Assembly: GCA_017480495.1 (NCBI GenBank)
Contig: JAFVAQ010000025.1
Coordinates: 1 to 41,265, forward strand
Length of the DNA: 41,265 nucleotides
DNA from: Eubacterium sp.
GTDB lineage: Bacteria; Bacillota; Clostridia; Lachnospirales; Lachnospiraceae
Reading direction: 5' to 3'
Shown here: piece after piece, positions 4,036-21,585 of the stretch
Position numbering within the stretch: position 1 is the stretch's first letter
Layout of the letters: every line of letters starts with the position of its first letter
The notes under the pieces: model-generated
What the model saw: only the letters and a program-made list of their open reading frames with translations
Databases searched by the model: none
What the model was told of the DNA's origin: nothing
Program-made: the position numbers and the translations under genes

Positions 4036-4688
4036 TGAACATACTTGCTCCATCGATACTATCTATTGACTTCGGTCATATGGAGGATGAACTTAAGAAA
4101 GTGGTAAATGCAGGAGCAGATATCATTCATGTGGATGTTATGGATGGCCTGTTTGTTCCAAATATATCCTTTGGACCTCCGGTTATTAAATATGTGAAAA
4201 AGGCTATTCCTGATACGAAGCTTGACCTTCATATGATGGTCAAGGATCCGATCAGATACCTAAATACTTACGTGAGTCTGGGAATGAGTGACATCACTAT
4301 TCATGCTGAGGCAACAAAGCATTTGAGAGAGGACCTGCTTCAGATAAAGGAGTCAGGCCTCGGAGTAGGCGTTGCTGTTAGCCCTGATACTCCTCTTAGT
4401 GCAGTGGAGAATGTACTCGATCTCATAGATATTCTTCTCATTATGACTGTTTATCCTGGATTTGGTGGACAGAGCTTCAGAGAAGAGTCTTATGACAAGA
4501 TCAGAGAAGCCGTACAGATGAGAGAGACCAGAGGACTTAGCTTTGATATTGAGGTGGACGGCGGTGTTAATGCTGAGAACATAGACAAGATACTTGCAGC
4601 CGGCGCGAATATGATAGTTGCAGGTTCTGCTGTATTTAATGGTGATACAGAAGCAAATACAAAAAGATTATTAGAGATGATGAAATGA
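4035..4688 (+). CDS. rpe: Ribulose-phosphate 3-epimerase
   Basis: A cytoplasmic TIM-barrel enzyme that interconverts ribulose 5-phosphate and xylulose 5-phosphate in the pentose phosphate pathway. Seen: APSILSIDF at the N-terminus, HVDVMDG with its metal and catalytic residues, DLHMMV, the HAEA strand, VYPGFGGQSF and the late VDGGV phosphate-binding turn. I chose the ATG at 4035, which overlaps the rsgA stop as TAATG and sits eight bases after AGGAGG (4021-4026). An in-frame ATG at 4029 would leave only two bases. The product is 217 residues, normal for the family. It is the fourth gene of the stp-prkC-rsgA-rpe-thiN run that is conserved in Firmicutes. Confidence 0.95.
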   Translation: MNILAPSILSIDFGHMEDELKKVVNAGADIIHVDVMDGLFVPNISFGPPVIKYVKKAIPDTKLDLHMMVKDPIRYLNTYVSLGMSDITIHAEATKHLREDLLQIKESGLGVGVAVSPDTPLSAVENVLDLIDILLIMTVYPGFGGQSFREESYDKIREAVQMRETRGLSFDIEVDGGVNAENIDKILAAGANMIVAGSAVFNGDTEANTKRLLEMMK

Positions 4689-5323
4689 AAATTCTTTTAG
4701 TTGCAGGTGGAGAACTGGATATAGATGTTCTTAAGAAAGTATATAACGGACTAGACAACCCATATGTTATTGGAGTTGATAGAGGGACCTTGATACTTCT
4801 TGAAAACGGGATCAAGATAGATAGAGCGATAGGAGACTTTGACTCTGTAACGGATGAGGAAAGAGAGGGTATCTTATCTAAGCTTGATTTTGAGAAGCTT
4901 AATCCTGTAAAAGACGATACAGATACAGAACATGCTCTTAAATATGCCATTTCGCTTGCACCAGAAGAGATAATCATGCTGGGCAGTACTGGAAGAAGAA
5001 TGGATCACAGCCTTGCCTGTGTAGGAATGCTTCGTCTCGCCTATGATGCGGGTATAGAAGCGTATATAATTGACAGATATAACCGTATACGTGTAACGCG
5101 TGGAGATGTACAACTTTCCGCGTCAGAATGTTACGGTAAGTACATATCAATACTTCCTTATGGCGATAAGGCCAGGGGACTAAGTATAAAAGGTTTTAAG
5201 TATAATGCTGAAGGACTTGATATTACAGCGGCTGAGACTAGAGGCGTCAGTAATGAACTGATAGAGGAAGTAGGAAGCATTTCATGTGACGATTATATGA
5301 TAATAATGGAGACCCGAGACTAA
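4685..5323 (+). CDS. thiN: Thiamine pyrophosphokinase
   Basis: A 212-residue cytoplasmic enzyme that transfers pyrophosphate from ATP to thiamine, giving ThDP. Family motifs seen: GDFDS near residue 51, the acidic DDTDTEHAL segment near 78-86, GSTGRRMDHSL near 99-109, and a C-terminal beta-rich thiamine-binding half ending with a G-V-S-N element. The start overlaps the rpe stop (ATGA), and the stop overlaps the next start (TAATG), so translation is coupled on both sides. ThDP made here would be the cofactor for the acetolactate-synthase-like protein at 10858, though that link is only biochemical common sense. Confidence 0.92.
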   Translation: MKILLVAGGELDIDVLKKVYNGLDNPYVIGVDRGTLILLENGIKIDRAIGDFDSVTDEEREGILSKLDFEKLNPVKDDTDTEHALKYAISLAPEEIIMLGSTGRRMDHSLACVGMLRLAYDAGIEAYIIDRYNRIRVTRGDVQLSASECYGKYISILPYGDKARGLSIKGFKYNAEGLDITAAETRGVSNELIEEVGSISCDDYMIIMETRD

Positions 5324-10857: not shown

Positions 10858-12648
10858 ATGAAACTTTCGGATTATGTATTTAAGTTTTATGAAGATAAAG
10901 GTGTAAAAAATGCATTTATGCTTTCTGGCGGAGGAATAATGCATTTGGTTGATTCACTTGGAAGAAGCAACATTAATTATATATGTTGTCATCATGAGCA
11001 GGCTGCGTCTATAGCAGCACAGGCTGCGACTATGTATAACGAAGTGCCAGCAATATGTCTTTCTACGACTGGACCGGGTGGAACTAATGCACTAACCGGA
11101 TGTGCAGCAGCTTATGTGGATTCTACTCCTGAGATATTTTTGTCGGGACAAGTTAAGAGATCTGATTATGCTTCACTTAGAGGCGTTAGGCAGTTTGGAG
11201 CGCAGGAAAATGATATTATCTCAATGGCTAAGCCGGTTACTAAATATGCAGTTCAGATAAATGATCCAGATAAAATAAGATATGAATTAGAAAAGTCTTT
11301 TTATATTGCGACAAGTGGTAGAAAAGGACCTGTATGGATTGATATTCCTTTAGATGTTCAAGCGATGGATATTGAACCAGATAGTTTATGTAGTTTTAAT
11401 GAAAATGAATCGATAGATGAGAAAAAAGATGTTCCAGATGATATAATAAATGAAGTCTATAACACCTTGGTTAATTCTCATAAACCTGTAGTTTTAATTG
11501 GACAGGGTGCAGTGGCCTCTGGGGCATATGATGTTATAAGAGATTTTATAAATATAACACACATTCCGGTTTTAACAACTTGGAGAGTTCAAGATTTCAT
11601 GGATAGCGATGCGAAGGGGTATTATGGTAGTCCTGGACTTCAAGCTCCAAGGTATTCTAATCTTATTATACAGAATGCAGATACTCTTCTTGTGCTGGGA
11701 AGCCGACTCGATAATATGATTACAGCTTTTAATGAAGAGCATTTTGCTTATAAAGCTAAACGTATAATAGTTGATATTGATTCGAATGAAATAAACAAAC
11801 TTAATATGCCAGGAAAACTTGGGATAGTATACGATATCAAAGAGTTTGTTAGTAAGCTTGTAGATTTTTGTGAGCGTAATAATTATGCAAATAATATTAA
11901 TCAGTGGATAGATGTTTGTGAATTAGTGAAAAAAAAGTTTCCGTTGCTTAATGAACAACAAGAAGTTGATGATAGTGTCAATCTATATAAAGTTACTAAT
12001 TGCGTTTCAAACTATGCTCAATCAGATGATGTTATTGTTATTTCCTCAACAAGTAGATGTAATACAGCAGGACATATAGCGTTTAATCATAAAAAAGGAC
12101 AAAAAACTATTTCATCTATGGGAATGGGATCTATGGGATTCGCTATACCATCAGCAGTAGGAGCTTATTTTGCAAGTGATAATCGAGTTGTTGTAATAGA
12201 AGGTGATGGTAGCTTACAGCTTAATATACAGGAGTTGGAAACTATAGTATCTAATGGAGTAGATGCCAAGATGTTTATATTTGATAATAGAGGCTACGCA
12301 GCTATCACGACGATGCAGGACCGAAATTTTGATAGCTTTTATGTTGGTAGTAATGAACAGAGCAAACTGTTTATGCCAATCACCTCAGAAATTTCTAAGG
12401 CCTATGGTATACCTTGTTATGAAATAAAAACAGATGATGATATTGAAAAAGTAGTTCCAGAAGTGTTTGACACGGAAGGACCTGTGATGTGTGTAATATA
12501 TGGTTCTCTTCATTTTGACGAAATACCAAAATGCATATCGAAAGTAAATGAAGAGACAGGTCAGCGGGAATCAGCTGTACTAGAGAATCCGTATCCATTT
12601 TTAACAGAAGAAGAATTAGAAAGTGTTCAAAATATACTTACTATATAG
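10858..12648 (+). CDS. Thiamine-diphosphate-dependent enzyme, acetolactate-synthase-like
   Basis: A 596-residue ThDP enzyme with the three-domain layout of acetolactate synthase. The catalytic Glu is Glu47 in HHEQAA; TGPGGTNALTG follows near 77-87; the central domain has PVVLIGQGAVASGAY; and the ThDP-magnesium motif runs from GDGS near 449 to FDN near 476-478. GPVMCVI lies near the end and a unique tail of about 55 residues follows. The context is not amino-acid synthesis: the next gene is NeuB-like and no small ilvN-type subunit is present. Some relatives, such as YerE of yersiniose synthesis, add two-carbon units to nucleotide sugars, so sugar branching is a possible role; a keto-acid decarboxylase is another. 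AAAGGAG lies before the ATG. First gene of the cassette. Confidence 0.8.
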   Translation: MKLSDYVFKFYEDKGVKNAFMLSGGGIMHLVDSLGRSNINYICCHHEQAASIAAQAATMYNEVPAICLSTTGPGGTNALTGCAAAYVDSTPEIFLSGQVKRSDYASLRGVRQFGAQENDIISMAKPVTKYAVQINDPDKIRYELEKSFYIATSGRKGPVWIDIPLDVQAMDIEPDSLCSFNENESIDEKKDVPDDIINEVYNTLVNSHKPVVLIGQGAVASGAYDVIRDFINITHIPVLTTWRVQDFMDSDAKGYYGSPGLQAPRYSNLIIQNADTLLVLGSRLDNMITAFNEEHFAYKAKRIIVDIDSNEINKLNMPGKLGIVYDIKEFVSKLVDFCERNNYANNINQWIDVCELVKKKFPLLNEQQEVDDSVNLYKVTNCVSNYAQSDDVIVISSTSRCNTAGHIAFNHKKGQKTISSMGMGSMGFAIPSAVGAYFASDNRVVVIEGDGSLQLNIQELETIVSNGVDAKMFIFDNRGYAAITTMQDRNFDSFYVGSNEQSKLFMPITSEISKAYGIPCYEIKTDDDIEKVVPEVFDTEGPVMCVIYGSLHFDEIPKCISKVNEETGQRESAVLENPYPFLTEEELESVQNILTI

Positions 12649-12679
12649 AAATAGATATTATTAGGAGGAGGGGTAAGTC

Positions 12680-14212
12680 ATGAAACTATATAATAAGCCG
12701 CTATTTATATTTGAAATGGCTAATAATCATCAAGGAAGTGTCGAACATGGCAAAAAGATAATTAGGAGTATGGCGGATGCTGTTTCTGATTATAGAGAAT
12801 GTTTTGATTTTGCCTTTAAGTTTCAGTATAGGGACCTTGATACATTTATTAGACCTGATTATATAGATAGAGATGATATAAAGAATGTTAAGAGATTCAA
12901 AGATACAAGGCTTAGTCAGGAACAATTTCTTGAACTAAAAAATGAAGTAGAAAGTGTAGGCATGTTTACGATTTGTACAGGTTTCGATGAAAAATCTGTC
13001 GAACGTATAGGTGAACAAAACTATGATGTAATCAAAATAGCTAGCTGCTCATTTAATGATTGGCCTTTACTTGAAACTATTGCAAAGACAGGTCTTCCAG
13101 TGATTGCCTCTACAGCGGGAGTTTCTGAGGAAGAGATAGATAAGGTTGTTTCTTTTTTTGAACACAGAAATATAGACTTAACTATTATGCATTGTGTAGC
13201 TGAATATCCTACACCTAATGAAAATCTTCAGATGAACCAAATTGATTATCTTAGAGATAGATATAAAGGGCATAGAGTTGGTTTTTCTACACATGAAGAT
13301 CCTTCAAACATGGATCCAATTAAAATGGCAGTGGCTAAGAATGTTAAGATTTTTGAAAAGCATGTAGGATATCCAACGGAAGAAATAACATTAAATGGCT
13401 ATTCGGCAAATCCAGAGCAAGTAAAAGAATGGGTGAAGACTGCGTATGATGCTTTTACAATGTGTGGAGTTGAGGGACAACGAAGTAAGTCTTCTGAAAA
13501 AGAACAGAGTGATTTGGCAGCGTTACAGAGAGGTGTTTTTGCAAAGGCTGATCTTAAAGCTGGAACAGAGATATCTGCAAAAAATAGTTATTATGCTTTC
13601 CCATGTGAACAAGGACAATTATTAACTCGGAATATATCCAAATATGCCAATATTACACTGACGAAAGACATAGAAGCAGGTAAACCTATTTTCTTAGAAG
13701 ATTTAGAGATTAAGAATAATTATGATGAGGTTGCTGATAAAGTAAAAAAGGTTATGCATCTACTAAAGAAAAGTAATGTCACTGTTCCGCTTGATAGTAG
13801 ATGTGAATTATCTCATCATTATGGAATAGAATCCTTTGATGAGGTTGGACTCACACTAATAGATTGTATAAACCGAGAATATTGTAAGAAAATACTTGTC
13901 GTTTTACCTGGTCAGAGTCATCCAGCACACTATCATAAAAAAAAGGAAGAAACCTTTACTATTTTATATGGATCTCTAGATGTAGTGTGTGATGGTGAGG
14001 TTAAACATATGGGCAGAGGTGAAACTATGACTGTTCATAGAAATGTTAATCATAGTTTTAGCTCTGAAGAGGGGTGTGTTTTTGAAGAAGTCTCTACTAC
14101 ACATTATAAAGATGATTCATTTTATGAAAAAAAGGATGAGTTTGTAAGTCCAAGAAAAACAGGTGTTTATATAACTGCAGATATGATAAAACGATATGAG
14201 AAGGAATCATGA
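12680..14212 (+). CDS. NeuB-like sialic/nonulosonic acid synthase with SAF and cupin domains
   Basis: A 510-residue protein in three parts. Residues 1-275 are a NeuB-type TIM barrel that condenses phosphoenolpyruvate with an aldehyde sugar: EMANNHQG at 12-19, FKFQYRD, KIASCSFNDWPLLE, HCVAEYPTPNENLQM, GFSTHED with His205, and EKHVG with His228; the two His match the family metal site. Residues about 284-345 are a SAF/antifreeze-like domain that usually closes the active site. Residues about 407-480 form a cupin with GQSHPAHYHKKKEE and a late His, an added domain. After EKH the sequence departs from classic NeuB (the GPDHKASL segment is replaced by EITLNGYSANPEQ), so the substrate is probably not N-acetylmannosamine. 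AGGAGGAGG precedes the ATG. No CMP-sugar activating enzyme is nearby. Confidence 0.85.
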   Translation: MKLYNKPLFIFEMANNHQGSVEHGKKIIRSMADAVSDYRECFDFAFKFQYRDLDTFIRPDYIDRDDIKNVKRFKDTRLSQEQFLELKNEVESVGMFTICTGFDEKSVERIGEQNYDVIKIASCSFNDWPLLETIAKTGLPVIASTAGVSEEEIDKVVSFFEHRNIDLTIMHCVAEYPTPNENLQMNQIDYLRDRYKGHRVGFSTHEDPSNMDPIKMAVAKNVKIFEKHVGYPTEEITLNGYSANPEQVKEWVKTAYDAFTMCGVEGQRSKSSEKEQSDLAALQRGVFAKADLKAGTEISAKNSYYAFPCEQGQLLTRNISKYANITLTKDIEAGKPIFLEDLEIKNNYDEVADKVKKVMHLLKKSNVTVPLDSRCELSHHYGIESFDEVGLTLIDCINREYCKKILVVLPGQSHPAHYHKKKEETFTILYGSLDVVCDGEVKHMGRGETMTVHRNVNHSFSSEEGCVFEEVSTTHYKDDSFYEKKDEFVSPRKTGVYITADMIKRYEKES

Positions 14213-15135
14213 AATATTTAATTACTGGTCCTACAGGGACAATTGGAATGTCACTAATAAAACAATTGTCATTAGATGATAATGATATATGGGTTATTTG
14301 TAATCCTAAATCAAGACGAAGTCATATATTAAAACAATTCAAGAATATAAAAGTTATTTATTGTGATATGAATTCATATGATAGTATTAAAGAAGAAGAT
14401 CTACCAGAATCGTGGGATTGCACGATTAATCTTGCTTGGAAGGGGACTATTGGTGGTTCAAGAGATGATATGTTAATACAGTCATATAATATTTTGAGTG
14501 GTATACAAATTATTGAATTATCACATAAACATAATTGTAAATTGTTTGTAGGTGCTGGTTCTCAGGCTGAATATGGGAGAAAAAATCATCCAATTAGAGA
14601 GGACGAGAATACAAATCCTGAAAATGGTTATGGAATTGCAAAATTAGCCCTTAATAAAATGTCGAAAACCCTATGTGAAAAATATAGAATGAGATTTTTA
14701 TGGTTAAGAATATTTAGTGTATATGGTCCATATGAAAACTACTATTCTTTGACTATATCTACTATATTAAAATGTATAAACAATAAGAAACCATCATTTA
14801 CTAGTGCAGAACAATTATGGGATTATGCATATACTGATGATGTGGCTGATTCAATTATAAAGTTAATATATGGTCAAAGTGAAGGTGTTTATAATATCGG
14901 AAGCGGTAAAATGAAGCCATTATCCTATTATATAGACAAAATTATAAAGGCATCTAATTATAAAGGGGATATTGGTTATGGAGAAATTGCTTATTCTACT
15001 AAACAGGTTATGTATTTATGTGCTGATATATCAAAACTGAAAGAAACAATAGGTGATTGTATGAAAACCTCATTTGATGAGGGAATAAAAAATACTATTG
15101 ATTGGTGCCGGAGTTTAAATGATTATGAAGTGTAG
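14209..15135 (+). CDS. NAD(P)-dependent epimerase/dehydratase (extended SDR)
   Basis: A 308-residue Rossmann-fold protein of the nucleotide-sugar epimerase/dehydratase type. Seen: the N-terminal LITGPTGTIGMS glycine motif, GAGSQAEYG in the position of the catalytic Ser/Thr, YGIAK as the Tyr-x-x-x-Lys pair, LRIFSVYGPYE, and a C-terminal YNIGSG sugar-binding turn. Substrate and precise reaction (epimerase, reductase or dehydratase) cannot be assigned. Its ATG overlaps the NeuB-like stop (ATGA), and its 3' end overlaps the next gene by 17 bases, so the three genes are probably translationally coupled. The sequence is visibly AT-rich, with heavy use of TTA and ATA codons. Confidence 0.85.
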   Translation: MKYLITGPTGTIGMSLIKQLSLDDNDIWVICNPKSRRSHILKQFKNIKVIYCDMNSYDSIKEEDLPESWDCTINLAWKGTIGGSRDDMLIQSYNILSGIQIIELSHKHNCKLFVGAGSQAEYGRKNHPIREDENTNPENGYGIAKLALNKMSKTLCEKYRMRFLWLRIFSVYGPYENYYSLTISTILKCINNKKPSFTSAEQLWDYAYTDDVADSIIKLIYGQSEGVYNIGSGKMKPLSYYIDKIIKASNYKGDIGYGEIAYSTKQVMYLCADISKLKETIGDCMKTSFDEGIKNTIDWCRSLNDYEV

Positions 15136-16234
15136 ATTGTGTTCCAAGATTATAGAAAGTCCTAAGTTATACGGTTTCAAAAATATGCCAGATTCGGCAC
15201 AAGGTCTTCTTGATATGGTAGATGAAAATGATAAAGGTATTAGCTATGATTTATATCAATGCGAGTATTGTGGGATGATACAGTTAGATTGTGAGCCAGT
15301 CAGTTATTTCAAGGATGTTATTAGAACAACAGGCAATACCAAAACAATGAATACGACTAGATTTGATGAAATATCTTATTTTGCGAGAAAATATAATTTA
15401 ATAGATTTAAAAGTATTAGAAATTGGTTCAGGACAAGGTGAAAATCTACGTATTGGTAAATCTTTAGGATTAAAAATATATGGGTTAGAGAATAATAAAA
15501 CAAATGTAGATAAATCTATTTCTTTTGGTTACCATACAATTAATGGTTATCCAGATGATAGTTTACTTATTGAAGAATCTCCATTTGATGCTTTTATGTG
15601 TTTTAATTTTTTAGAACATCAGCCAGATCCTAATTTATTTATTCAGGGTATATCTAGACAATTAAAAAAAGGAGCGGTTGGTTTTGTTACAGTTCCGGAT
15701 TTTGATTTTATTATAAGAAGTAATGGGTATTATGAATTTATTAGGGATCATTTATTATATTTTAATAAAGATACTTTGATAACGTTGTTTAAAAATAATG
15801 GTTTTGAAATACTAGAATTAGGTGATAGCAATAAAGATACAATAAAAATAATAGTAAAAAAAAGAAGTGGTTTTGTGTTTGATGATATCATTGAAAAGAA
15901 GGATTATCTAAAAGGACAAATTAAAGCATTTTTTAAATGTCATAAGAATGTAGCTGTCTGGGGAGCTAGTCATCAAGCATTTACAATTATTCAAATGCTT
16001 CAGATTTCTGATAAAATATCATTTATCATTGATTCTGCACCTTTTAAACAAGGAAAATACTCTCCGGCATCACATATTAAAATAGTTTCTTCTGAAGAAA
16101 TAGATAAGTCGAAAATAGATGGAGTGATTATTATCGCGCCAACGTATTCTGATGAAATAGCTAATATAATTAAGGATAATTATCCTAATGTTGATGTTGT
16201 TTCTATTCTAAACAATCATTTAATAAAGTACTAG
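15119..16234 (+). CDS. SAM-dependent C-methyltransferase, TylCIII/NovU-like architecture
   Basis: A 371-residue protein with three parts. The N-terminal CRLC and later CEYC pairs form a small zinc-binding domain. A class I SAM domain carries VLEIGSGQGENL near residues 99-110 and a later FNFLEHQPDP. The C-terminal domain has AVWGASHQAF, a DSAPFKQGKYSPASHIKI stretch and a IIAPTYSDEI strand, matching the C-terminal domain of sugar C-methyltransferases. Such enzymes add a methyl group to C3 or C5 of keto nucleotide sugars in antibiotics and some surface glycans. CGGAG lies five bases before the ATG at 15119; an in-frame ATG at 15125 is an alternative start. Substrate unknown. Confidence 0.82.
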   Translation: MIMKCRLCSKIIESPKLYGFKNMPDSAQGLLDMVDENDKGISYDLYQCEYCGMIQLDCEPVSYFKDVIRTTGNTKTMNTTRFDEISYFARKYNLIDLKVLEIGSGQGENLRIGKSLGLKIYGLENNKTNVDKSISFGYHTINGYPDDSLLIEESPFDAFMCFNFLEHQPDPNLFIQGISRQLKKGAVGFVTVPDFDFIIRSNGYYEFIRDHLLYFNKDTLITLFKNNGFEILELGDSNKDTIKIIVKKRSGFVFDDIIEKKDYLKGQIKAFFKCHKNVAVWGASHQAFTIIQMLQISDKISFIIDSAPFKQGKYSPASHIKIVSSEEIDKSKIDGVIIIAPTYSDEIANIIKDNYPNVDVVSILNNHLIKY

Positions 16235-16302
16235 TATTTTGTTGATATTATTAAATAGTTAATGAAAGGAGAAAGAGGTGTAATAAGCATCTGATTATTA
16301 TT

Positions 16303-17250
16303 ATGTTAAAAATATCTGTGATGCTTCCGTGTTATAACGAGGAAGAAAATGTTGTTCAAATATATGAAGCTGTTAGAAGTGTTATAGTTGATAATTTGCC
16401 TAATTATAATTATGAAATATTATTTGTTGATAACAAATCAACTGATAATACTAGAGAACTAATAAGAAAGATATGTTTTAAAGACAAAAATGTAAAAGCA
16501 ATATTCAATATTGCAAATTTTGGTCAATTTAATAGTCCATATCATGCACTATGTCAGTGTTCTGGCGATTGTGTTATTAGCATGAGTTCCGATTTTCAAG
16601 ATCCTCCAAAATATATTGTTGATATGGTTCATGAGTGGGAAAAAGGAAATAGTGTTGTTTGTATGGTAAAGACATCAAGTAAAGAAAATCCCATCATATA
16701 TAAGTTAAGAGGGATTTATTACAATTTGATTCATAAGATGAGTAACATAGATCAAATAAAGCAATTTGCAGGTTTTTGTTTATTTGATAAAACCTTCATT
16801 AAATTATTACGTGAATTAAATGATCCGACACCATTCATAAAAGGTATTATATCTGAATATGCACCTAATAGAGTTGAAATACCTTACGAGCAACAAAAAA
16901 GAAAAGCAGGCAAAAGCAAAAATAATTTTTTTACTCTTTATGATGCTGCTATGTTAAGTTTCACAAGTTATACAAAAGGAGGATTAAGAATTGCTACTTT
17001 TATTGGATTAATTATATCATCGTTAAGTTTTTTGCTTGCTTTAGTTTATTTGATTATGAAATTAATTATGTGGAATGAATTCATTGCAGGAAATGCTCCT
17101 ATACTAATTGGAGTATATTTCTTGGGAGGAATTCAGTTGTTTTTTTTAGGATTGCTGGGAGAATATGTAATGACGATGAATTCAAGAGTCATAAATAAGC
17201 CATTGGTGGTTGAGGAAGAAAGAATCAACATGGATTTAGATAATAAATAA
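16303..17250 (+). CDS. Family 2 glycosyltransferase, GtrB/DPM1-like, with two C-terminal membrane helices
   Basis: A 315-residue inverting GT-A transferase likely to move a sugar from a nucleotide donor to polyprenyl phosphate on the inner membrane face. Seen: SVMLPCYNEEENV at the N-terminus, FVDNKSTDNT (the usual DDGS is DNKS here), SSDFQDPP as the metal-binding acidic motif near residue 97-104, a QQKRKAGKSKN segment typical of the GtrB group, and helices at about 232-254 and 264-288. The nearest good ribosome site (AGGAGA, 16267-16272) is 30 bases before the ATG, too far for ordinary initiation. The only in-frame alternatives after the stop at 16282 are CTG or ATT codons, so the start is uncertain. 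Confidence 0.88.
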   Translation: MLKISVMLPCYNEEENVVQIYEAVRSVIVDNLPNYNYEILFVDNKSTDNTRELIRKICFKDKNVKAIFNIANFGQFNSPYHALCQCSGDCVISMSSDFQDPPKYIVDMVHEWEKGNSVVCMVKTSSKENPIIYKLRGIYYNLIHKMSNIDQIKQFAGFCLFDKTFIKLLRELNDPTPFIKGIISEYAPNRVEIPYEQQKRKAGKSKNNFFTLYDAAMLSFTSYTKGGLRIATFIGLIISSLSFLLALVYLIMKLIMWNEFIAGNAPILIGVYFLGGIQLFFLGLLGEYVMTMNSRVINKPLVVEEERINMDLDNK

Positions 17251-17269
17251 AACAAATAAGGAGATAATG

Positions 17270-18169
17270 ATGAAGACTTTAGTATGGGGATTAGACAAAG
17301 ATTATTATGATAACAGGGAATGGATAGAAAGCAATTTTGATGATTTGTATTATTATGATGCAAATGAAAAAAAATTACCGTTGTATAACGCAATTAAAAA
17401 GGAGGATCTGGATAATACTTTAAGTGAATTTGATTGTATCCTTGTGGCTGCAGATCCTCCAAGTATAATTGATTTATTAGTGAATCAATATAAAATATCG
17501 CTTTCCAAGATAAAAGTGTTGTTTTATGAAATATTAAAATATAACGCCGAGGAAATAAAGTTTTTTGGTGAATCTAATGAAGATGCTGTAATTATGTTAT
17601 TGTTATCAAGATTAGGGATCAGCTTAAAAGATGCAAGATATTTGGAAATAGGAACAAATGATCCTGTAAGGCATAATAATAGTTTTTCACTTTATCAAAA
17701 TGGAGCTAGAGGAGTTCTTGTAGATGCATTTCCAATGGTAGGAGTTCTTTCTCAGATTATTCGTCCTGAAGATAAGTTTATAAATTGTGCTGTTTCTGAT
17801 AAGTCAGGAGAAAATGTTGTTTTTTATGCTTGTGAGAGTTCGGCGTATAGTAGTTTGGATGAAGAACATCATAAACAGTATGAAAATCAACGATTAAATA
17901 GGGTGAGAGAAATTTCTGTACCTATGATTGGAATTAATGAACTAATTAATATGTGTGGATTTGTTCCTAATGTTTTATTGTGTGATGCAGAAGGATTTGA
18001 TGAGAGGATTGTAAGAGGAATAGAGGATTATGTATTTGATATAATAATGCTTGAAACTGATCATGTTGATACGGATAATGATAGTTTATTAAACTACATG
18101 GAAGAAAAAGGGTACAAACTCTTTTCGCGCATCAAACAGAATGATATATATTATAGAATCAAACGGTAA
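17270..18169 (+). CDS. FkbM-family SAM-dependent methyltransferase
   Basis: A 299-residue protein. An N-terminal part of about 100 residues reads like a small Rossmann-type domain, with FDCILVAADPPS, and is not itself a methyltransferase. The FkbM domain follows from about 120: YLEIGTNDP as the SAM loop, GVLVDAFP with the ribose-binding Asp, NCAVSDKSGENVVFYA, and LLCDAEGFDERIVRG then IIMLETD, the family core. FkbM proteins O-methylate sugars or polyketides. I prefer the ATG at 17270, six bases after AAGGAG, over the adjacent ATG at 17267. It is the last cassette gene, 19 bases after the glycosyltransferase. Confidence 0.85.
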   Translation: MKTLVWGLDKDYYDNREWIESNFDDLYYYDANEKKLPLYNAIKKEDLDNTLSEFDCILVAADPPSIIDLLVNQYKISLSKIKVLFYEILKYNAEEIKFFGESNEDAVIMLLLSRLGISLKDARYLEIGTNDPVRHNNSFSLYQNGARGVLVDAFPMVGVLSQIIRPEDKFINCAVSDKSGENVVFYACESSAYSSLDEEHHKQYENQRLNRVREISVPMIGINELINMCGFVPNVLLCDAEGFDERIVRGIEDYVFDIIMLETDHVDTDNDSLLNYMEEKGYKLFSRIKQNDIYYRIKR

Positions 18170-18257: not shown

Positions 18258-19406
18258 ATGAAGAATATATCAATTATAGGTTCCACTGGCTCGATAGGAA
18301 CTCAGGCTCTTGATATAGTCAGAGCAAATGATGACCTGAAGGTTGTGGCACTTGCATGTGGAAGTAATATAGAACTACTAGAGAAACAGGCTAGGGAATT
18401 TAGTCCCGAGCTTGTTTCTGTTATGTCAGAGGAAGCTGCAGATACACTCAGAGTAAAGCTTGCTGATACAGGTATTAAGGTTGTTTCAGGAATGAAGGGA
18501 CTTTGTGAGGTTAGTGCAATAGATTCAGCGGACATGACTCTTACAGCTGTAGTAGGAATGATAGGAGTAGAACCAACTCTTGCCGCGATAGAGGCAGGAA
18601 AGGATATAGCTCTTGCAAATAAGGAGACTTTAGTTACTGCAGGTCATCTTGTTATGAAAGCAGCAGCAGAAAAGGGTGTTAGGATACTTCCAGTAGATAG
18701 CGAGCATAGTGCGATATTCCAGAGTCTTCAAGGTAATCAAAACAATAAGATATCAAGAATTCTTCTAACAGCCTCAGGTGGTCCATTTAGAGGTCGTAAA
18801 AGGGGCGAACTGGCTGATGTAACTATTGAACAGGCGCTTAATCATCCTAACTGGTCCATGGGACCCAAAATTACCATCGATAGTGCTAGCATGGTTAACA
18901 AGGGACTTGAAGTAATAGAAGCACATTGGTTATTCGATACCGATATAGAGGATATAGAGGTTTTGATTCAGCCTCAGAGTATCATTCATTCGGCGGTTGA
19001 ATATGAGGATGGAGCAGTGATAGCACAGCTCGGAACTCCAGATATGAAGTTACCTATACAGTATGCTTTCTATTATCCGGAGAGAAGATATCTGGCGGGA
19101 GAGAGATTGGACTTCACTAAGATAAGTGGAATCATAATAGATAAGCCTGATTATGAGGCGTTCCTCGGTATACCTCTTGCCAAGAAGGCGAGTCAGATAG
19201 GTGGTTCTATGCCAACAGTTATGAATGAAGCAAACGAGCATGCAGTTGCGGCATTCCTTGCTGGCAAGATCAAGTTCCTGGAAATATATGACATGATTGA
19301 GTACGCTATGTCACAGCACAAGGTTATTCCAGATGTTGACCTAAAGGGAATACTTGAAACAAGAGACGAGACAGATGCACTATTACGTGCAAAATATGGG
19401 GTATAA
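18258..19406 (+). CDS. dxr: 1-deoxy-D-xylulose 5-phosphate reductoisomerase
   Basis: A 382-residue NADPH enzyme that turns DXP into MEP, the first committed step of the non-mevalonate isoprenoid pathway. Seen: IIGSTGSIGTQALDIV at the N-terminus, ALANKETLVTAG, PVDSEHSAIFQ with metal ligands, LTASGGPFRG, then NHPNWSMGPKITIDSASMVNKGLEVIEAHWLF (in parts) covering the substrate site. GAGAGGAT lies before the ATG. In most relatives it follows cdsA directly; here 7.4 kb separate them, leaving dxr dependent on read-through or on a promoter in the AT-rich spacer 18170-18257, where I see no convincing one. Confidence 0.97.
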   Translation: MKNISIIGSTGSIGTQALDIVRANDDLKVVALACGSNIELLEKQAREFSPELVSVMSEEAADTLRVKLADTGIKVVSGMKGLCEVSAIDSADMTLTAVVGMIGVEPTLAAIEAGKDIALANKETLVTAGHLVMKAAAEKGVRILPVDSEHSAIFQSLQGNQNNKISRILLTASGGPFRGRKRGELADVTIEQALNHPNWSMGPKITIDSASMVNKGLEVIEAHWLFDTDIEDIEVLIQPQSIIHSAVEYEDGAVIAQLGTPDMKLPIQYAFYYPERRYLAGERLDFTKISGIIIDKPDYEAFLGIPLAKKASQIGGSMPTVMNEANEHAVAAFLAGKIKFLEIYDMIEYAMSQHKVIPDVDLKGILETRDETDALLRAKYGV

Positions 19407-19421
19407 TACATATACTTACTT

Positions 19422-19429
19422 AGAATGAC
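19422..19429 (-). repeat. Possible half-copy of the intergenic hairpin repeat
   Basis: AGAATGAC is the reverse complement of GTCATTCT, the opening of the hairpin repeat, in the dxr-rseP spacer. The other arm is absent, so it may be a decayed minus-strand copy or chance. Confidence 0.25.
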
Positions 19430-19441
19430 GGGATATAAAGA

Positions 19442-20515
19442 ATGGATCAACTGATTAATATAATTGCGATAATACTTACCTTCGGAATAATTGTGTTCGT
19501 ACATGAATTTGGGCATTTTATCTTTGCGAAAATGAACCACATCAAGGTTAATGAATTCGCTGTAGGTATGGGCCCTAAGATAGCTAGCTGGGAAAAGAAT
19601 GAAACACTGTATTCAGTAAGAGGGCTTCCATTTGGTGGTTACTGCCTGATGGAAGGAATGGCAGAGGCGTCTGACAACAAGAATGGCTATAATAATAAGT
19701 CAGTTTTAGCTAGACTCTCTGTATCCTTTGCGGGACCATTTTTCAACTTCGTATTAGCATTCCTACTTTCAATCATTATTTGTCATTTCTATGCAATAGA
19801 TGAGCCTATATTAACCAAAATAATGGATAATAGTGCAGCCTCAGAAGCAGGTATAGAAGCAGGTGACAAGATAGTAGCACTTGATGGTAAGAGAATATAC
19901 AATTACCGCGAGATTACTCTTTATTCTATGGTAACTGATCCAAAGGATCCTGTGGAAATCACTTATGAACGTGAAGGAAAGGAATATAATACAACCCTTA
20001 CTAGAAAGAAAGATGCTGAAACAGGTAACTACTATTTTGGATTTATCAGTATGGGTAGACCTTCTAAGGGTTTAGCGGATGAATTAAAGTATTCCGTATA
20101 CGAAGTTAGATTCCAAGTAAAAGCAGTTATATATTCTATCAAAATGCTTGTTACAGGTAAGGCGTCTAAAGATAGTCTCATGGGACCGGTTGGAATCAGT
20201 AGCACCATGAATGACATTATAGAAGAGGCGAAGGAAGAGACTGCTGACGAGACAGCGTGGACGCAGTTCCTTACAGTATTTCTAAATATCGTGAACTTTG
20301 CAGTTTTGCTGAGTGCTAACCTCGGAATTATGAATCTACTTCCAGTACCAGCACTGGATGGTGGAAGGATTCTATTCGTACTGATTGAGGCTATATCAGG
20401 TAGACCAGTACCACCTGAAAAGGAAGCTATTGTAAATGCAGTTGGTGTTATACTGCTTATGCTTCTAATGATATTTGTATTCTTTAATGATTTAGGAAAC
20501 GTAATCAATAAATAG
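19442..20515 (+). CDS. rseP: Site-2-type intramembrane zinc metalloprotease RseP/RasP
   Basis: A 357-residue membrane protease that cleaves anti-sigma factors and leftover signal peptides inside the membrane. Seen: FVHEFGHF with the zinc-binding HExxH near residue 21-25, a PDZ domain around 125-195 (AASEAGIEAGDKIVALDG), and NLLPVPALDGGRI near 300-312, which provides the third zinc ligand Asp. Four hydrophobic segments match the family topology. It lies between dxr and ispG, the conserved order, with 35 bases upstream holding a possible decayed repeat. ispG follows eight bases after its stop. Confidence 0.95.
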   Translation: MDQLINIIAIILTFGIIVFVHEFGHFIFAKMNHIKVNEFAVGMGPKIASWEKNETLYSVRGLPFGGYCLMEGMAEASDNKNGYNNKSVLARLSVSFAGPFFNFVLAFLLSIIICHFYAIDEPILTKIMDNSAASEAGIEAGDKIVALDGKRIYNYREITLYSMVTDPKDPVEITYEREGKEYNTTLTRKKDAETGNYYFGFISMGRPSKGLADELKYSVYEVRFQVKAVIYSIKMLVTGKASKDSLMGPVGISSTMNDIIEEAKEETADETAWTQFLTVFLNIVNFAVLLSANLGIMNLLPVPALDGGRILFVLIEAISGRPVPPEKEAIVNAVGVILLMLLMIFVFFNDLGNVINK

Positions 20516-20523
20516 GAGAAAAA

Positions 20524-21585
20524 ATGTACAGAGATAATACAAAGAAGATAAAAATCGGTAATGTTGAAATTGGTGGCGGAAATAGAATAGCTATTCAGTC
20601 AATGACTAATACAGAAACCTCAGATATAGATGCGACAGTTGAACAGATACTCCGTCTTGAAGAGGCAGGCTGCGATATAGTTAGATGTACAGCAAATACG
20701 GAAGCTGCTGCTAGAGCCTTTGAGAAGCTGAAGGAGAGAACTCATGTTCCTCTTGTGGCGGATATACATTTTCAGTATAAGCTCGCTATTATGGCTATGG
20801 AAGCTGGCGCTGATAAGATAAGAATTAATCCTGGTAACATTGGTTCTGAGGAGAATCTTAGAGCTGTAGTTGATGTTGCGAAGAGTAGAGATATCCCTAT
20901 AAGAGTAGGTGTAAATAGCGGTTCGCTTGAGCAACAGTTTATCGATAAGTATAACGGCGTTACTGCAGAGGGTATCGTAGAAAGTGCTCTTGATAAGGTA
21001 AGAATGATTGAGGAACAGGACTATGACAATATCGTTATTAGTATCAAGTCTTCAGATGTTCTTATGTCTGTAAAAACTCATGAACTTATAGCTGAGAGAA
21101 CTAAGTATCCGCTTCATGTAGGTATTACAGAGTCGGGTACTCTTTGGAGCGGAAATATCAAGTCTTCAGTTGGACTTGGTATCATACTGAACCAGGGTAT
21201 AGGAGATACTATCCGTGTATCTCTGACAGGGGACCCTGTTGAAGAAGTAAAGAGTGCAAAGCTTATACTTAAGACACTGGGACTACGTAATGATGGAATA
21301 ACACTTGTATCATGTCCTACATGCGGTAGAACTCATATTGACTTAATTGGACTAGCCAATCAGACAGAAAAACTTATAAGCCAGTATAGTAACCTGAATA
21401 TTAAGGTTGCGGTTATGGGCTGTGCAGTTAATGGTCCTGGTGAAGCTAGAGAGGCAGACCTCGGAATAGCTGGCGGTGATGGAGTAGGACTTGTATTCAA
21501 GAAGGGTGAGATACTGAGAAAGGTTCCACAGGAACAACTATTATTAGAACTTAAGAAGGAATTGGATAATTGGGATGAAAACTGA
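20524..21585 (+). CDS. ispG: 4-hydroxy-3-methylbut-2-enyl diphosphate synthase (flavodoxin)
   Basis: A 353-residue iron-sulfur enzyme that converts MEcPP to HMBPP, the penultimate step of the MEP pathway. Seen: the N-terminal GNVEIGGGNRIAIQSMTNT, VPLVADIHF, KIRINPGNIG, and the 4Fe-4S ligands Cys264 and Cys267 (SCPTCGR) and Cys300 with a nearby Glu in GCAVNGPGEA. TAGGAG precedes the ATG. The last 11 bases overlap polC. The usual bacterial single-core form, without the plant-type insert. Confidence 0.96.
   Translation: MYRDNTKKIKIGNVEIGGGNRIAIQSMTNTETSDIDATVEQILRLEEAGCDIVRCTANTEAAARAFEKLKERTHVPLVADIHFQYKLAIMAMEAGADKIRINPGNIGSEENLRAVVDVAKSRDIPIRVGVNSGSLEQQFIDKYNGVTAEGIVESALDKVRMIEEQDYDNIVISIKSSDVLMSVKTHELIAERTKYPLHVGITESGTLWSGNIKSSVGLGIILNQGIGDTIRVSLTGDPVEEVKSAKLILKTLGLRNDGITLVSCPTCGRTHIDLIGLANQTEKLISQYSNLNIKVAVMGCAVNGPGEAREADLGIAGGDGVGLVFKKGEILRKVPQEQLLLELKKELDNWDEN

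What the first reader, a model, noticed from the sequence alone, without database searches (positions are those of the whole stretch)
10858..16234. ThDP enzyme, NeuB-like synthase and C-methyltransferase together suggest an unusual branched or higher-carbon acidic sugar
NeuB proteins add a three-carbon pyruvyl unit to a sugar. YerE-type ThDP enzymes add a two-carbon unit, and TylCIII-type enzymes add a methyl to carbon. Having all three in one operon with an SDR, and no CMP-sugar synthetase, does not match any standard sialic, legionaminic or pseudaminic acid pathway I know. The NeuB-like protein also departs from the classic sequence after EKH, implying a different acceptor. The system may build a sugar not yet described.
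Basis: inference. Interest (0 to 1): 0.75.

Follow-up and report, generated by a model that had tools for sequence, protein, structure and literature searches.

The report
Sialic-type synthase feeding sugar-branching enzyme
A bacterium carries a small gene set in which a relative of the enzyme that makes sialic acid probably supplies a carbon chain that a neighbouring vitamin-B1 enzyme grafts onto another sugar, a likely route to large branched sugars that would explain why the usual sialic-acid activating gene is not beside it.

Summary
Observation confirmed: window 10858-18169 holds ThDP enzyme, NeuB-cupin fusion, SDR, C-methyltransferase, GT2 and FkbM genes between cdsA and dxr. The ThDP protein is JanthE/YerE-like, not acetolactate synthase. 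Of 80 relatives of this NeuB, 30 of the 32 nearest carry the ThDP gene, 0 of the 48 others; a CMP-sugar synthetase cluster shows the reverse (0 of 32, 34 of 48; 2 and 35 with a more sensitive profile). RfbH, needed for CDP-3,6-dideoxy-4-keto-glucose (the YerE acceptor), passes its cut-off in 29 of 32 near and 2 of 18 far genomes searched. ThDP paralogs sit beside other 2-oxo-acid-forming enzymes (HMGL-like or HpcH/HpaI aldolase, classic NeuB) in 26 of 33 loci, 32 of them from the genus; outside it in 24 of 52 long paralogs and 0 of 7 short ones. Best reading: NeuB makes a 2-keto-3-deoxy acid; the ThDP enzyme decarboxylates it and grafts the rest onto C4 of the CDP-ketosugar, giving a neutral caryophyllose-type branched sugar. 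No activity was tested, and the window's own 66%-complete genome shows no RfbFGH over cut-off.

The parts
10858..12648 (+). ThDP-dependent JanthE/YerE-like carboligase (596 aa)
   Evidence: best solved relative JanthE 8rph, aligned 2-589; profile 561 bits for JanthE vs 405 for the best acetolactate synthase; HHEQ at 45, GDGS at 449
12680..14212 (+). NeuB-type PEP-condensing synthase fused to a SAF-like region and a D-lyxose/mannose-isomerase-like cupin (510 aa); proposed donor synthase
   Evidence: PF03102 130 bits, SAF 19.5 bits (cut-off 21), Cupin_2 39 bits, PF07385 30.6 bits; 3g8r E 3e-111; cupin profile vs 2y0o E 1e-13
14209..15135 (+). Extended SDR, proposed reductase of the branch ketone (YerF-like role, inferred)
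   Evidence: PF01370 111.8 bits; its cluster in 14 of 33 ThDP-type loci incl. window and 2 of 48 others
15119..16234 (+). TylCIII-type C-methyltransferase
   Evidence: PF08484 57 bits; D-mycarose 3-C-methyltransferase 4rv9 E 5e-12; its cluster in 18 of 33 ThDP-type loci incl. window, 0 of 48 others
16303..17250 (+). GT2, polyprenyl-phosphate glycosyltransferase type (PgfS/ArnC-like)
   Evidence: PF00535 84.6 bits; NF047588 156 bits, below its cut-off of 500; its cluster in 14 of 33 ThDP-type loci and 4 of 48 others
17267..18169 (+). FkbM-family methyltransferase, probable O-methylation of the glycan (inferred)
   Evidence: PF05050 36 bits
9279..10842 (+). uppS and cdsA, upstream flank of the insertion
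   Evidence: named by recall from sequence; same flank in L002 at 85% and 75% identity; GC 41-42% vs 28-35% in the insert
18258..21585 (+). dxr, rseP, ispG, downstream flank; in the nearest relative rfbF-rfbG-rfbH lie between dxr and rseP
   Evidence: Dxr over cut-off; rseP and ispG by recall; L094 layout

Best explanation
The operon builds a caryophyllose-type branched-chain sugar. Step 1 (inferred): the cupin domain, isomerase-like, may supply an aldose to the fused NeuB domain, which condenses it with PEP to a 2-keto-3-deoxy-aldonic acid. Step 2 (inferred from homology, linkage and published ErwE/JanthE chemistry): the JanthE/YerE-like ThDP enzyme takes this keto acid, releases CO2 and adds the polyhydroxyacyl anion to the C4 ketone of CDP-3,6-dideoxy-4-keto-hexose, made with RfbF, RfbG and RfbH. 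Step 3 (inferred): the SDR reduces the branch ketone, the C-methyltransferase and FkbM enzyme add methyl groups, and the GT2 loads the sugar onto a polyprenyl phosphate. The NeuB product is thus a sacrificial donor and needs no CMP activation. Shown here: gene linkage, near-exclusivity with CMP synthetase, co-occurrence with RfbG/RfbH in relatives, and replacement of NeuB by other 2-oxo-acid-forming enzymes beside paralogous ThDP genes. Not shown: any activity, the aldose, the final structure.
For: ThDP gene in the held DNA of 30 of 32 near loci vs 0 of 48 far loci; CMP-synthetase cluster 0 of 32 vs 34 of 48 (tests). NeuB rows of the near set form one clade, SH-aLRT 100. RfbH (NF011936) over cut-off in 29 of 32 near genomes vs 2 of 18 far; at E<=1e-50 31 of 32 vs 6 of 18. 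RfbG over cut-off 24 of 32 vs 2 of 18; at E<=1e-50 28 of 32 vs 4 of 18. RfbF/G/H in the held locus 15 of 32 vs 1 of 48. Nearest relative: rfbF-rfbG-rfbH in the same operon. Donor-maker rule: 26 of 33 ThDP-paralog loci (32 of the genus plus L118) have an HMGL-like (16), HpcH/HpaI (6) or classic NeuB (4) gene within 3 genes (clusters named from one representative each); labels cluster on the ThDP tree, 12 changes vs 33 in shuffles. Outside the genus 22 of 52 long ThDPs have NeuB or HMGL within 4 genes vs 0 of 7 short ones; two more (L173, L196) have over-cut-off 4-hydroxy-2-oxovalerate aldolase and acetaldehyde dehydrogenase directly upstream, matching a published ErwE donor, 4-hydroxy-2-oxopentanoate (PMC12247030 section 2.1). 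Of 4 congeners with classic NeuB beside ThDP, three have no PF02348 match at E<=1e-5 and one a 25.8-bit match; in L105 NeuB and NeuC pass their curated cut-offs.
Against: The window's own genome (65.6% complete) has no RfbF, RfbG or RfbH over cut-off, and rfbFGH are not between dxr and rseP there. In the genus RfbH is common without this NeuB (35 of 48 congeners have RfbH, 3 of 48 this NeuB), so genome-level co-occurrence among the Lachnospiraceae loci is weak evidence. 28 of 52 long ThDP loci outside the genus and 7 of 33 in the first paralog set show no recognised donor-maker nearby. A sensitive profile finds a CMP-synthetase-like protein in 2 of 32 near loci (L014, L024) and 1 of 34 paralog loci (L138); C6A11 (L005/L142) has one about 10 kb from its NeuB, beside an HMGL-like protein, so a 2-oxo acid may also be CMP-activated in such clusters. 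L007 (contig edge) and L014 hold no ThDP gene. The ThDP tree does not make the NeuB-cupin partners one group (3 changes). The structure tool was off, so active sites were not modelled.
Confidence: 0.65

Rival explanations
1. Two separate sugars: the ThDP enzyme makes a yersiniose-type C2 branch from pyruvate, and NeuB makes an independent ulosonic acid for the same glycan.
For: YerE itself prefers pyruvate; 7 short ThDPs outside the genus have no donor-maker, 6 of them with rfb genes nearby.
Against: Near-exclusive linkage of this NeuB clade to ThDP with CMP synthetase mostly absent; the ThDP here is of the long JanthE-like type, whose relatives often adjoin other 2-oxo-acid-forming enzymes.
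Confidence: 0.17
2. One reading: NeuB makes an acidic ulosonate that is itself then C-branched by the ThDP enzyme and C-methylated, giving a branched acidic sugar.
For: All enzyme types present.
Against: No CMP synthetase to activate such an acid found in 30 of 32 near loci; YerE adds to CDP-4-keto-3,6-dideoxyglucose, whose makers co-occur.
Confidence: 0.08
3. The ThDP enzyme acts first and makes the aldehyde or ketose that NeuB uses as acceptor.
For: Gene order ThDP-NeuB in the window and in most Lachnospiraceae loci; carboligases can make acyloins (established knowledge).
Against: Order is NeuB-ThDP in L023-L029 and L031-L033; ThDP-positive congeners without this NeuB still have RfbH in 28 of 30.
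Confidence: 0.05
4. The ThDP gene is an acetolactate synthase that happens to lie here.
For: NCBIfam lists acetolactate synthase models first.
Against: All 25 models shown (of 54 matched) are far below cut-off, e.g. TIGR00118 319 vs 538 bits; JanthE scores higher; three acetolactate synthases form their own branch, SH-aLRT 100.
Confidence: 0.02

Closest known systems
YerE-like lyases (YerE yersiniose, ErwE erwiniose, MMAR_2332 caryophyllose, JanthE)
   Same: ThDP fold and near full-length alignment to JanthE incl. the C-terminal part; RfbFGH acceptor route in relatives; ErwE prefers long hydroxylated 2-oxo acids and MMAR_2332 is said to be similar (PMC12247030, section 2.1 read whole)
   Different: here the partner is a NeuB-type PEP synthase fused to a cupin; the term NeuB has 0 occurrences in PMC12247030
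NeuB / SpsE nonulosonate synthases (3g8r family; NeuB, PseI, LegI)
   Same: TIM barrel + SAF-like region, conserved stretches
   Different: below NeuB and PseI equivalog cut-offs, cupin fusion, ThDP gene in place of CMP synthetase
D-lyxose/D-mannose isomerase cupins (2y0o, 7nzo)
   Same: C-terminal domain aligned to 2y0o in two stretches, HxH, E and H kept
   Different: fused to NeuB; isomerase activity untested
Caryophyllose (C12 sugar with hydroxylated C6 chain on C4)
   Same: C6 chain on a tetrasubstituted C4 (PMC7821131, passages); the branch as I recall it lacks oxygen at its second carbon, as a 2-keto-3-deoxy acid donor predicts
   Different: source of its branch donor not found in the papers I could read; product here unknown

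Membership tests
YerE-like ThDP lyase | closer to a characterised YerE-like enzyme (JanthE) than to acetolactate synthase | tested here: met
   561 vs 405 bits with the family profile; single protein 297 vs 241 bits; acetolactate synthases branch apart
YerE-like ThDP lyase | catalytic Glu and ThDP/Mg motif | tested here: met
   HHEQ 45, GDGS 449; E47, D450, N477 invariant in 26 aligned proteins; role of the residues recalled
YerE-like ThDP lyase | acts on CDP-3,6-dideoxy-4-keto-hexose, makers present | tested here: inconclusive
   RfbH/RfbG in relatives' genomes and in the nearest relative's operon but not over cut-off in the incomplete own genome
YerE-like ThDP lyase | ketone carboligation activity | not testable with these tools
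   needs an enzyme assay
Acetolactate synthase | passes a curated ALS model | tested here: not met
   319 vs cut-off 538 bits for TIGR00118; all 25 models shown below cut-off
N-acetylneuraminate or pseudaminate synthase | passes TIGR03569 or TIGR03586 | tested here: not met
   134.7 vs 399.65 and 117.7 vs 340.25 bits
NeuB superfamily (PF03102) | curated Pfam cut-off | tested here: met
   130 vs 22.1 bits
CMP-nonulosonate pathway | CMP-sugar synthetase beside NeuB | tested here: not met
   none among the six proteins of the operon; 2 of 32 near loci vs 35 of 48 far loci
TylCIII-type C-methyltransferase | C-terminal Methyltransf_14 over cut-off and Zn-type N-terminal cysteines | tested here: met
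   57.1 vs 23.5 bits; CRLC at 5, CEYC at 48, their zinc role recalled; Methyltransf_13 itself not listed; D stands before the conserved H in 17 of 18 members
D-lyxose/mannose isomerase | cupin with HxH, E and H metal ligands | tested here: met
   H417 (at least 90%), H419, E424, H458 (invariant) in 52; PF07385 30.6 vs 20.8 bits, matched over residues 381-424; ligand role recalled; activity not tested

The most novel reading that the evidence does not exclude
A general modular rule follows: the 2-oxo-acid-forming gene beside the carboligase (NeuB, HMGL-like aldolase, HpcH/HpaI, 4-hydroxy-2-oxovalerate aldolase) predicts the branch.
Probability: 0.55. Interest if true: 0.78.

Novelty: new variant of a known kind. 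Interest (0 to 1): 0.64.

Why it matters
It would give NeuB-family enzymes a second job: supplying a carbon chain for decarboxylative grafting instead of a sugar for CMP activation. That would explain NeuB genes that have no CMP synthetase, offer a source for the long branches of caryophyllose-type sugars, and let branch length be predicted from the gene next to the ThDP enzyme. It also warns against calling such genomes sialic-acid producers.

Tried and rejected
Acetolactate synthase rejected. Standard sialate/legionaminate/pseudaminate pathway rejected for the window NeuB (within an incomplete genome). 'Departure after EKH marks this operon' rejected: shared by the whole cupin family. The plasmid collection gave nothing useful: 2 ThDP records at 30-31% identity, one annotated ilvB and one unannotated, and no NeuB match. 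Key papers are not held (Steitz 2022; Vinogradov 2004; Rombouts 2009), so statements about donor supply in them, or in Krug 2024 (not tried), cannot be excluded. Ten full-text searches listed no paper that I recognised, from titles and abstract starts, as linking NeuB to a YerE-like enzyme. Papers seen: PMC12247030 outline and abstract, section 2.1 whole, part 1 of 2 of the references, and passages; PMC12188165, PMC7821131, PMC9912281, PMC4703794, PMC5706390 passages only.
Full report
What is there. The window (C18 of a 1.89 Mb, 65.6% complete genome) carries on the + strand ThDP enzyme 10858-12648, NeuB-cupin 12680-14212, SDR 14209-15135, C-methyltransferase 15119-16234, GT2 16303-17250 and FkbM methyltransferase 17267-18169. 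Spacing from cdsA on is operon-like (15, 31, -4, -17, 68, 16 bases). The set interrupts frr-uppS-cdsA | dxr-rseP-ispG-polC (frr, dxr, polC; the other names by recall). Its GC is 28-35% against 38-42% in the flanking genes, which suggests acquisition. The genus also holds the genomes of L002, L004 and L005, as shown by identical coordinates; L005 is Lachnospiraceae bacterium C6A11.

The ThDP enzyme. Its best solved relative is 8rph, which PMC12188165 (passages) identifies as JanthE, a YerE-like enzyme accepting short and long 2-oxo acids and several ketones. A profile of 26 relatives scores JanthE 561 bits over nearly full length and the best acetolactate synthase 405. All 25 NCBIfam models shown (of 54 matched) stay under their cut-offs, and three acetolactate synthases branch apart (SH-aLRT 100).

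The NeuB protein. It is a NeuB barrel with a SAF-like region (below Pfam's cut-off) and a C-terminal cupin. The nearest chain is 3g8r (E 3e-111). The cupin profile finds the D-lyxose isomerase 2y0o first (E 1e-13), and its HxH/E/H residues are kept. It fails the NeuB and PseI equivalog cut-offs.

Linkage test 1. A scan of genome contigs with this NeuB gave 140 confirmed relatives, of which the best 80 were returned. I split them at about 47.5% identity after seeing the neighbours: L002-L033 (32 loci) and L034-L081 (48). The ThDP gene is in the held DNA of 30 of 32 and 0 of 48; L007 (contig edge) and L014 lack it, and in L013 and L022 it lies 8-9 kb away. A CMP-synthetase cluster (PF02348/PseF-like by its representative) is in 0 of 32 and 34 of 48; a more sensitive profile gives 2 of 32 and 35 of 48. 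On a tree of 51 of the 80 loci plus the window and 4 classic NeuBs, the near rows form one side of a branch with SH-aLRT 100, so the split is not only an identity threshold.

Linkage test 2, the acceptor. Beside many of these pairs lie RfbF, RfbG and RfbH, whose representatives pass the curated cut-offs. Within held loci at least one occurs in 15 of 32 near and 1 of 48 far loci. Whole genomes (50 of the 80 searched): RfbH over cut-off in 29 of 32 near and 2 of 18 far genomes; at E<=1e-50, 31 of 32 and 6 of 18. RfbG over cut-off 24 of 32 and 2 of 18; at E<=1e-50, 28 of 32 and 4 of 18. In the nearest relative the glycan genes sit in the same housekeeping operon, with rfbF-rfbG-rfbH between dxr and rseP. 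CDP-3,6-dideoxy-4-keto-glucose is the published YerE acceptor (PMC12247030 section 2.1). Limits: the own genome shows no RfbF, RfbG or RfbH over cut-off, and within the genus RfbH is common anyway (35 of 48 congeners). There it tracks the ThDP genes: both 31, RfbH alone 4, ThDP alone 2, neither 11 (test).

Linkage test 3, the donor. If NeuB supplies the donor, ThDP paralogs without it should sit by other 2-oxo-acid-forming enzymes. I fetched 34 of the 47 ThDP places (L105-L138; 33 from the genus, L118 from another family); 33 loci hold a ThDP ORF in my clustering. Within three same-strand genes, 16 have an HMGL-like protein (PF00682 by its representative; nearest solved chains a putative aldolase and 4-hydroxy-2-oxovalerate aldolase), 6 an HpcH/HpaI protein (PF03328, 34.9 bits by its representative; no solved chain found), 4 a classic NeuB: 26 of 33. 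Partner labels cluster on the ThDP tree (12 changes, shuffled mean 33; a quick tree with long branches). The NeuB-cupin partners are not one group there (3 changes); two HMGL-linked ThDPs (L119, L120) fall among them at modest support, as partner exchange would give.

I then tested outside the genus: 392 genomes of the order, 60 of 65 listed places fetched, 59 with a ThDP ORF; L144 is the same contig as L019, judged by its length. RfbF or RfbH lies within four same-strand genes in 41 of 59. NeuB (7, three of them short proteins) or HMGL (15) accompanies 22 of 52 ThDPs of 585 aa or more and 0 of 7 shorter ones (p 0.04); 6 of those 7 have rfb genes nearby, the layout expected of pyruvate users. 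Donor-making ORFs are 19 of 228 within two genes and 4 of 333 farther off (p 4e-5). Two further loci, L173 and L196, have acetaldehyde dehydrogenase and 4-hydroxy-2-oxovalerate aldolase over their curated cut-offs directly before the ThDP gene. Their product, 4-hydroxy-2-oxopentanoate, is a reported ErwE donor. This is the best anchor for the donor rule. A HAD phosphatase stands near the ThDP gene in 9 loci, all with a donor-maker, which would fit phosphorylated keto acids. Against: 28 of 52 long ThDPs have no recognised donor-maker nearby.

Classic NeuB cases. In L105, L106, L107 and L115 a classic NeuB and a NeuC-type epimerase sit by the ThDP gene; in L105 both pass their curated cut-offs. 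Three of these four genomes (88, 72 and 97% complete) have no PF02348 match at E<=1e-5 and the fourth one of 25.8 bits. Their keto acid is therefore probably not CMP-activated either. Other genes there (Gfo/Idh type, CBS-nucleotidyltransferase) resemble legionaminate genes by recall, so a different use remains possible.

Counter-case. In C6A11 (L005/L142) a 221-aa cytidylyltransferase-like protein lies about 10 kb from the NeuB, next to what look by eye like an HMGL-type aldolase and a sugar kinase. It may belong to that second pathway, but it shows that CMP activation of a 2-oxo acid in the same cluster cannot be ruled out. L014 has a similar pair.

Mechanism and product. PEP + aldose gives a 2-keto-3-deoxy acid; decarboxylative addition to the C4 ketone gives a 4-C-acyl 3,6-dideoxyhexose; the SDR reduces it. 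A C4, C5 or C6 aldose would give a C12, C13 or C14 sugar. Caryophyllose, a C12 sugar with a hydroxylated C6 chain on C4 (PMC7821131 passages), fits the scheme; its side-chain deoxy positions are recalled. PMC5706390 (passages) states, citing others, that MMAR_2332 mutants accumulate a precursor that lacks the terminal caryophyllose. The role of the C-methyltransferase is open: C3 of the hexose, or the position next to the branch ketone.

Verdict. The parts are real and linked far beyond chance. The system works like, and by sequence belongs to, the YerE-like branched-sugar pathways, with a NeuB-type enzyme as proposed donor synthase. That last step is inferred.

Noticed in passing
window 10858-18169; L002 and L094: Low-GC glycan genes are inserted in the uppS-cdsA/dxr-rseP-ispG-polC housekeeping operon; a relative has a larger insert there plus rfbFGH between dxr and rseP, as if this operon were a recurrent landing site.
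   Followed up: partly
L105, L106, L107, L115 (unnamed congeners): Classic NeuB and NeuC-type genes beside a YerE-like ThDP gene, with no PF02348 match in 3 of the 4 genomes and a 25.8-bit one in the fourth.
   Followed up: partly
L142:7314-10609 (C6A11): By eye an HMGL-type aldolase and a PfkB-type kinase beside a cytidylyltransferase-like 221-aa protein: perhaps a CMP-ulosonate route that starts from an aldolase instead of NeuB. L014:471-2819 looks similar.
   Followed up: no
L026:6256-6837 and five more loci (L023, L024, L025, L029, L033): A 192-218 aa protein beside the NeuB-ThDP pair, between the two genes in L024, L025, L026 and L033; the L026 representative has no Pfam or NCBIfam match at the limits used.
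   Followed up: no
L030:12063-13145 and 17 more near loci: A radical SAM protein is found in 18 of the 32 near loci and in none of the 48 far loci, but not in the window's operon; a NUDIX protein likewise in 11 and none.
   Followed up: no
L193, L194, L197, L198, L199: Short (568-583 aa) ThDP proteins next to rfbF/rfbH without a recognised donor-making gene, fitting pyruvate-using true YerE.
   Followed up: partly
L108, L110, L117, L118 (and, by eye only, L196): Split transketolase halves near YerE-like ThDP genes.
   Followed up: no
L147:4039-4692, L148:8450-9274, L149:3088-3918: Short NeuB-like proteins of 217-276 aa near ThDP genes, too short to hold the usual C-terminal SAF domain.
   Followed up: no
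window 4685-5323: Thiamine diphosphokinase gene a few genes upstream; ordinary housekeeping, though it makes the cofactor of the ThDP enzyme.
   Followed up: no
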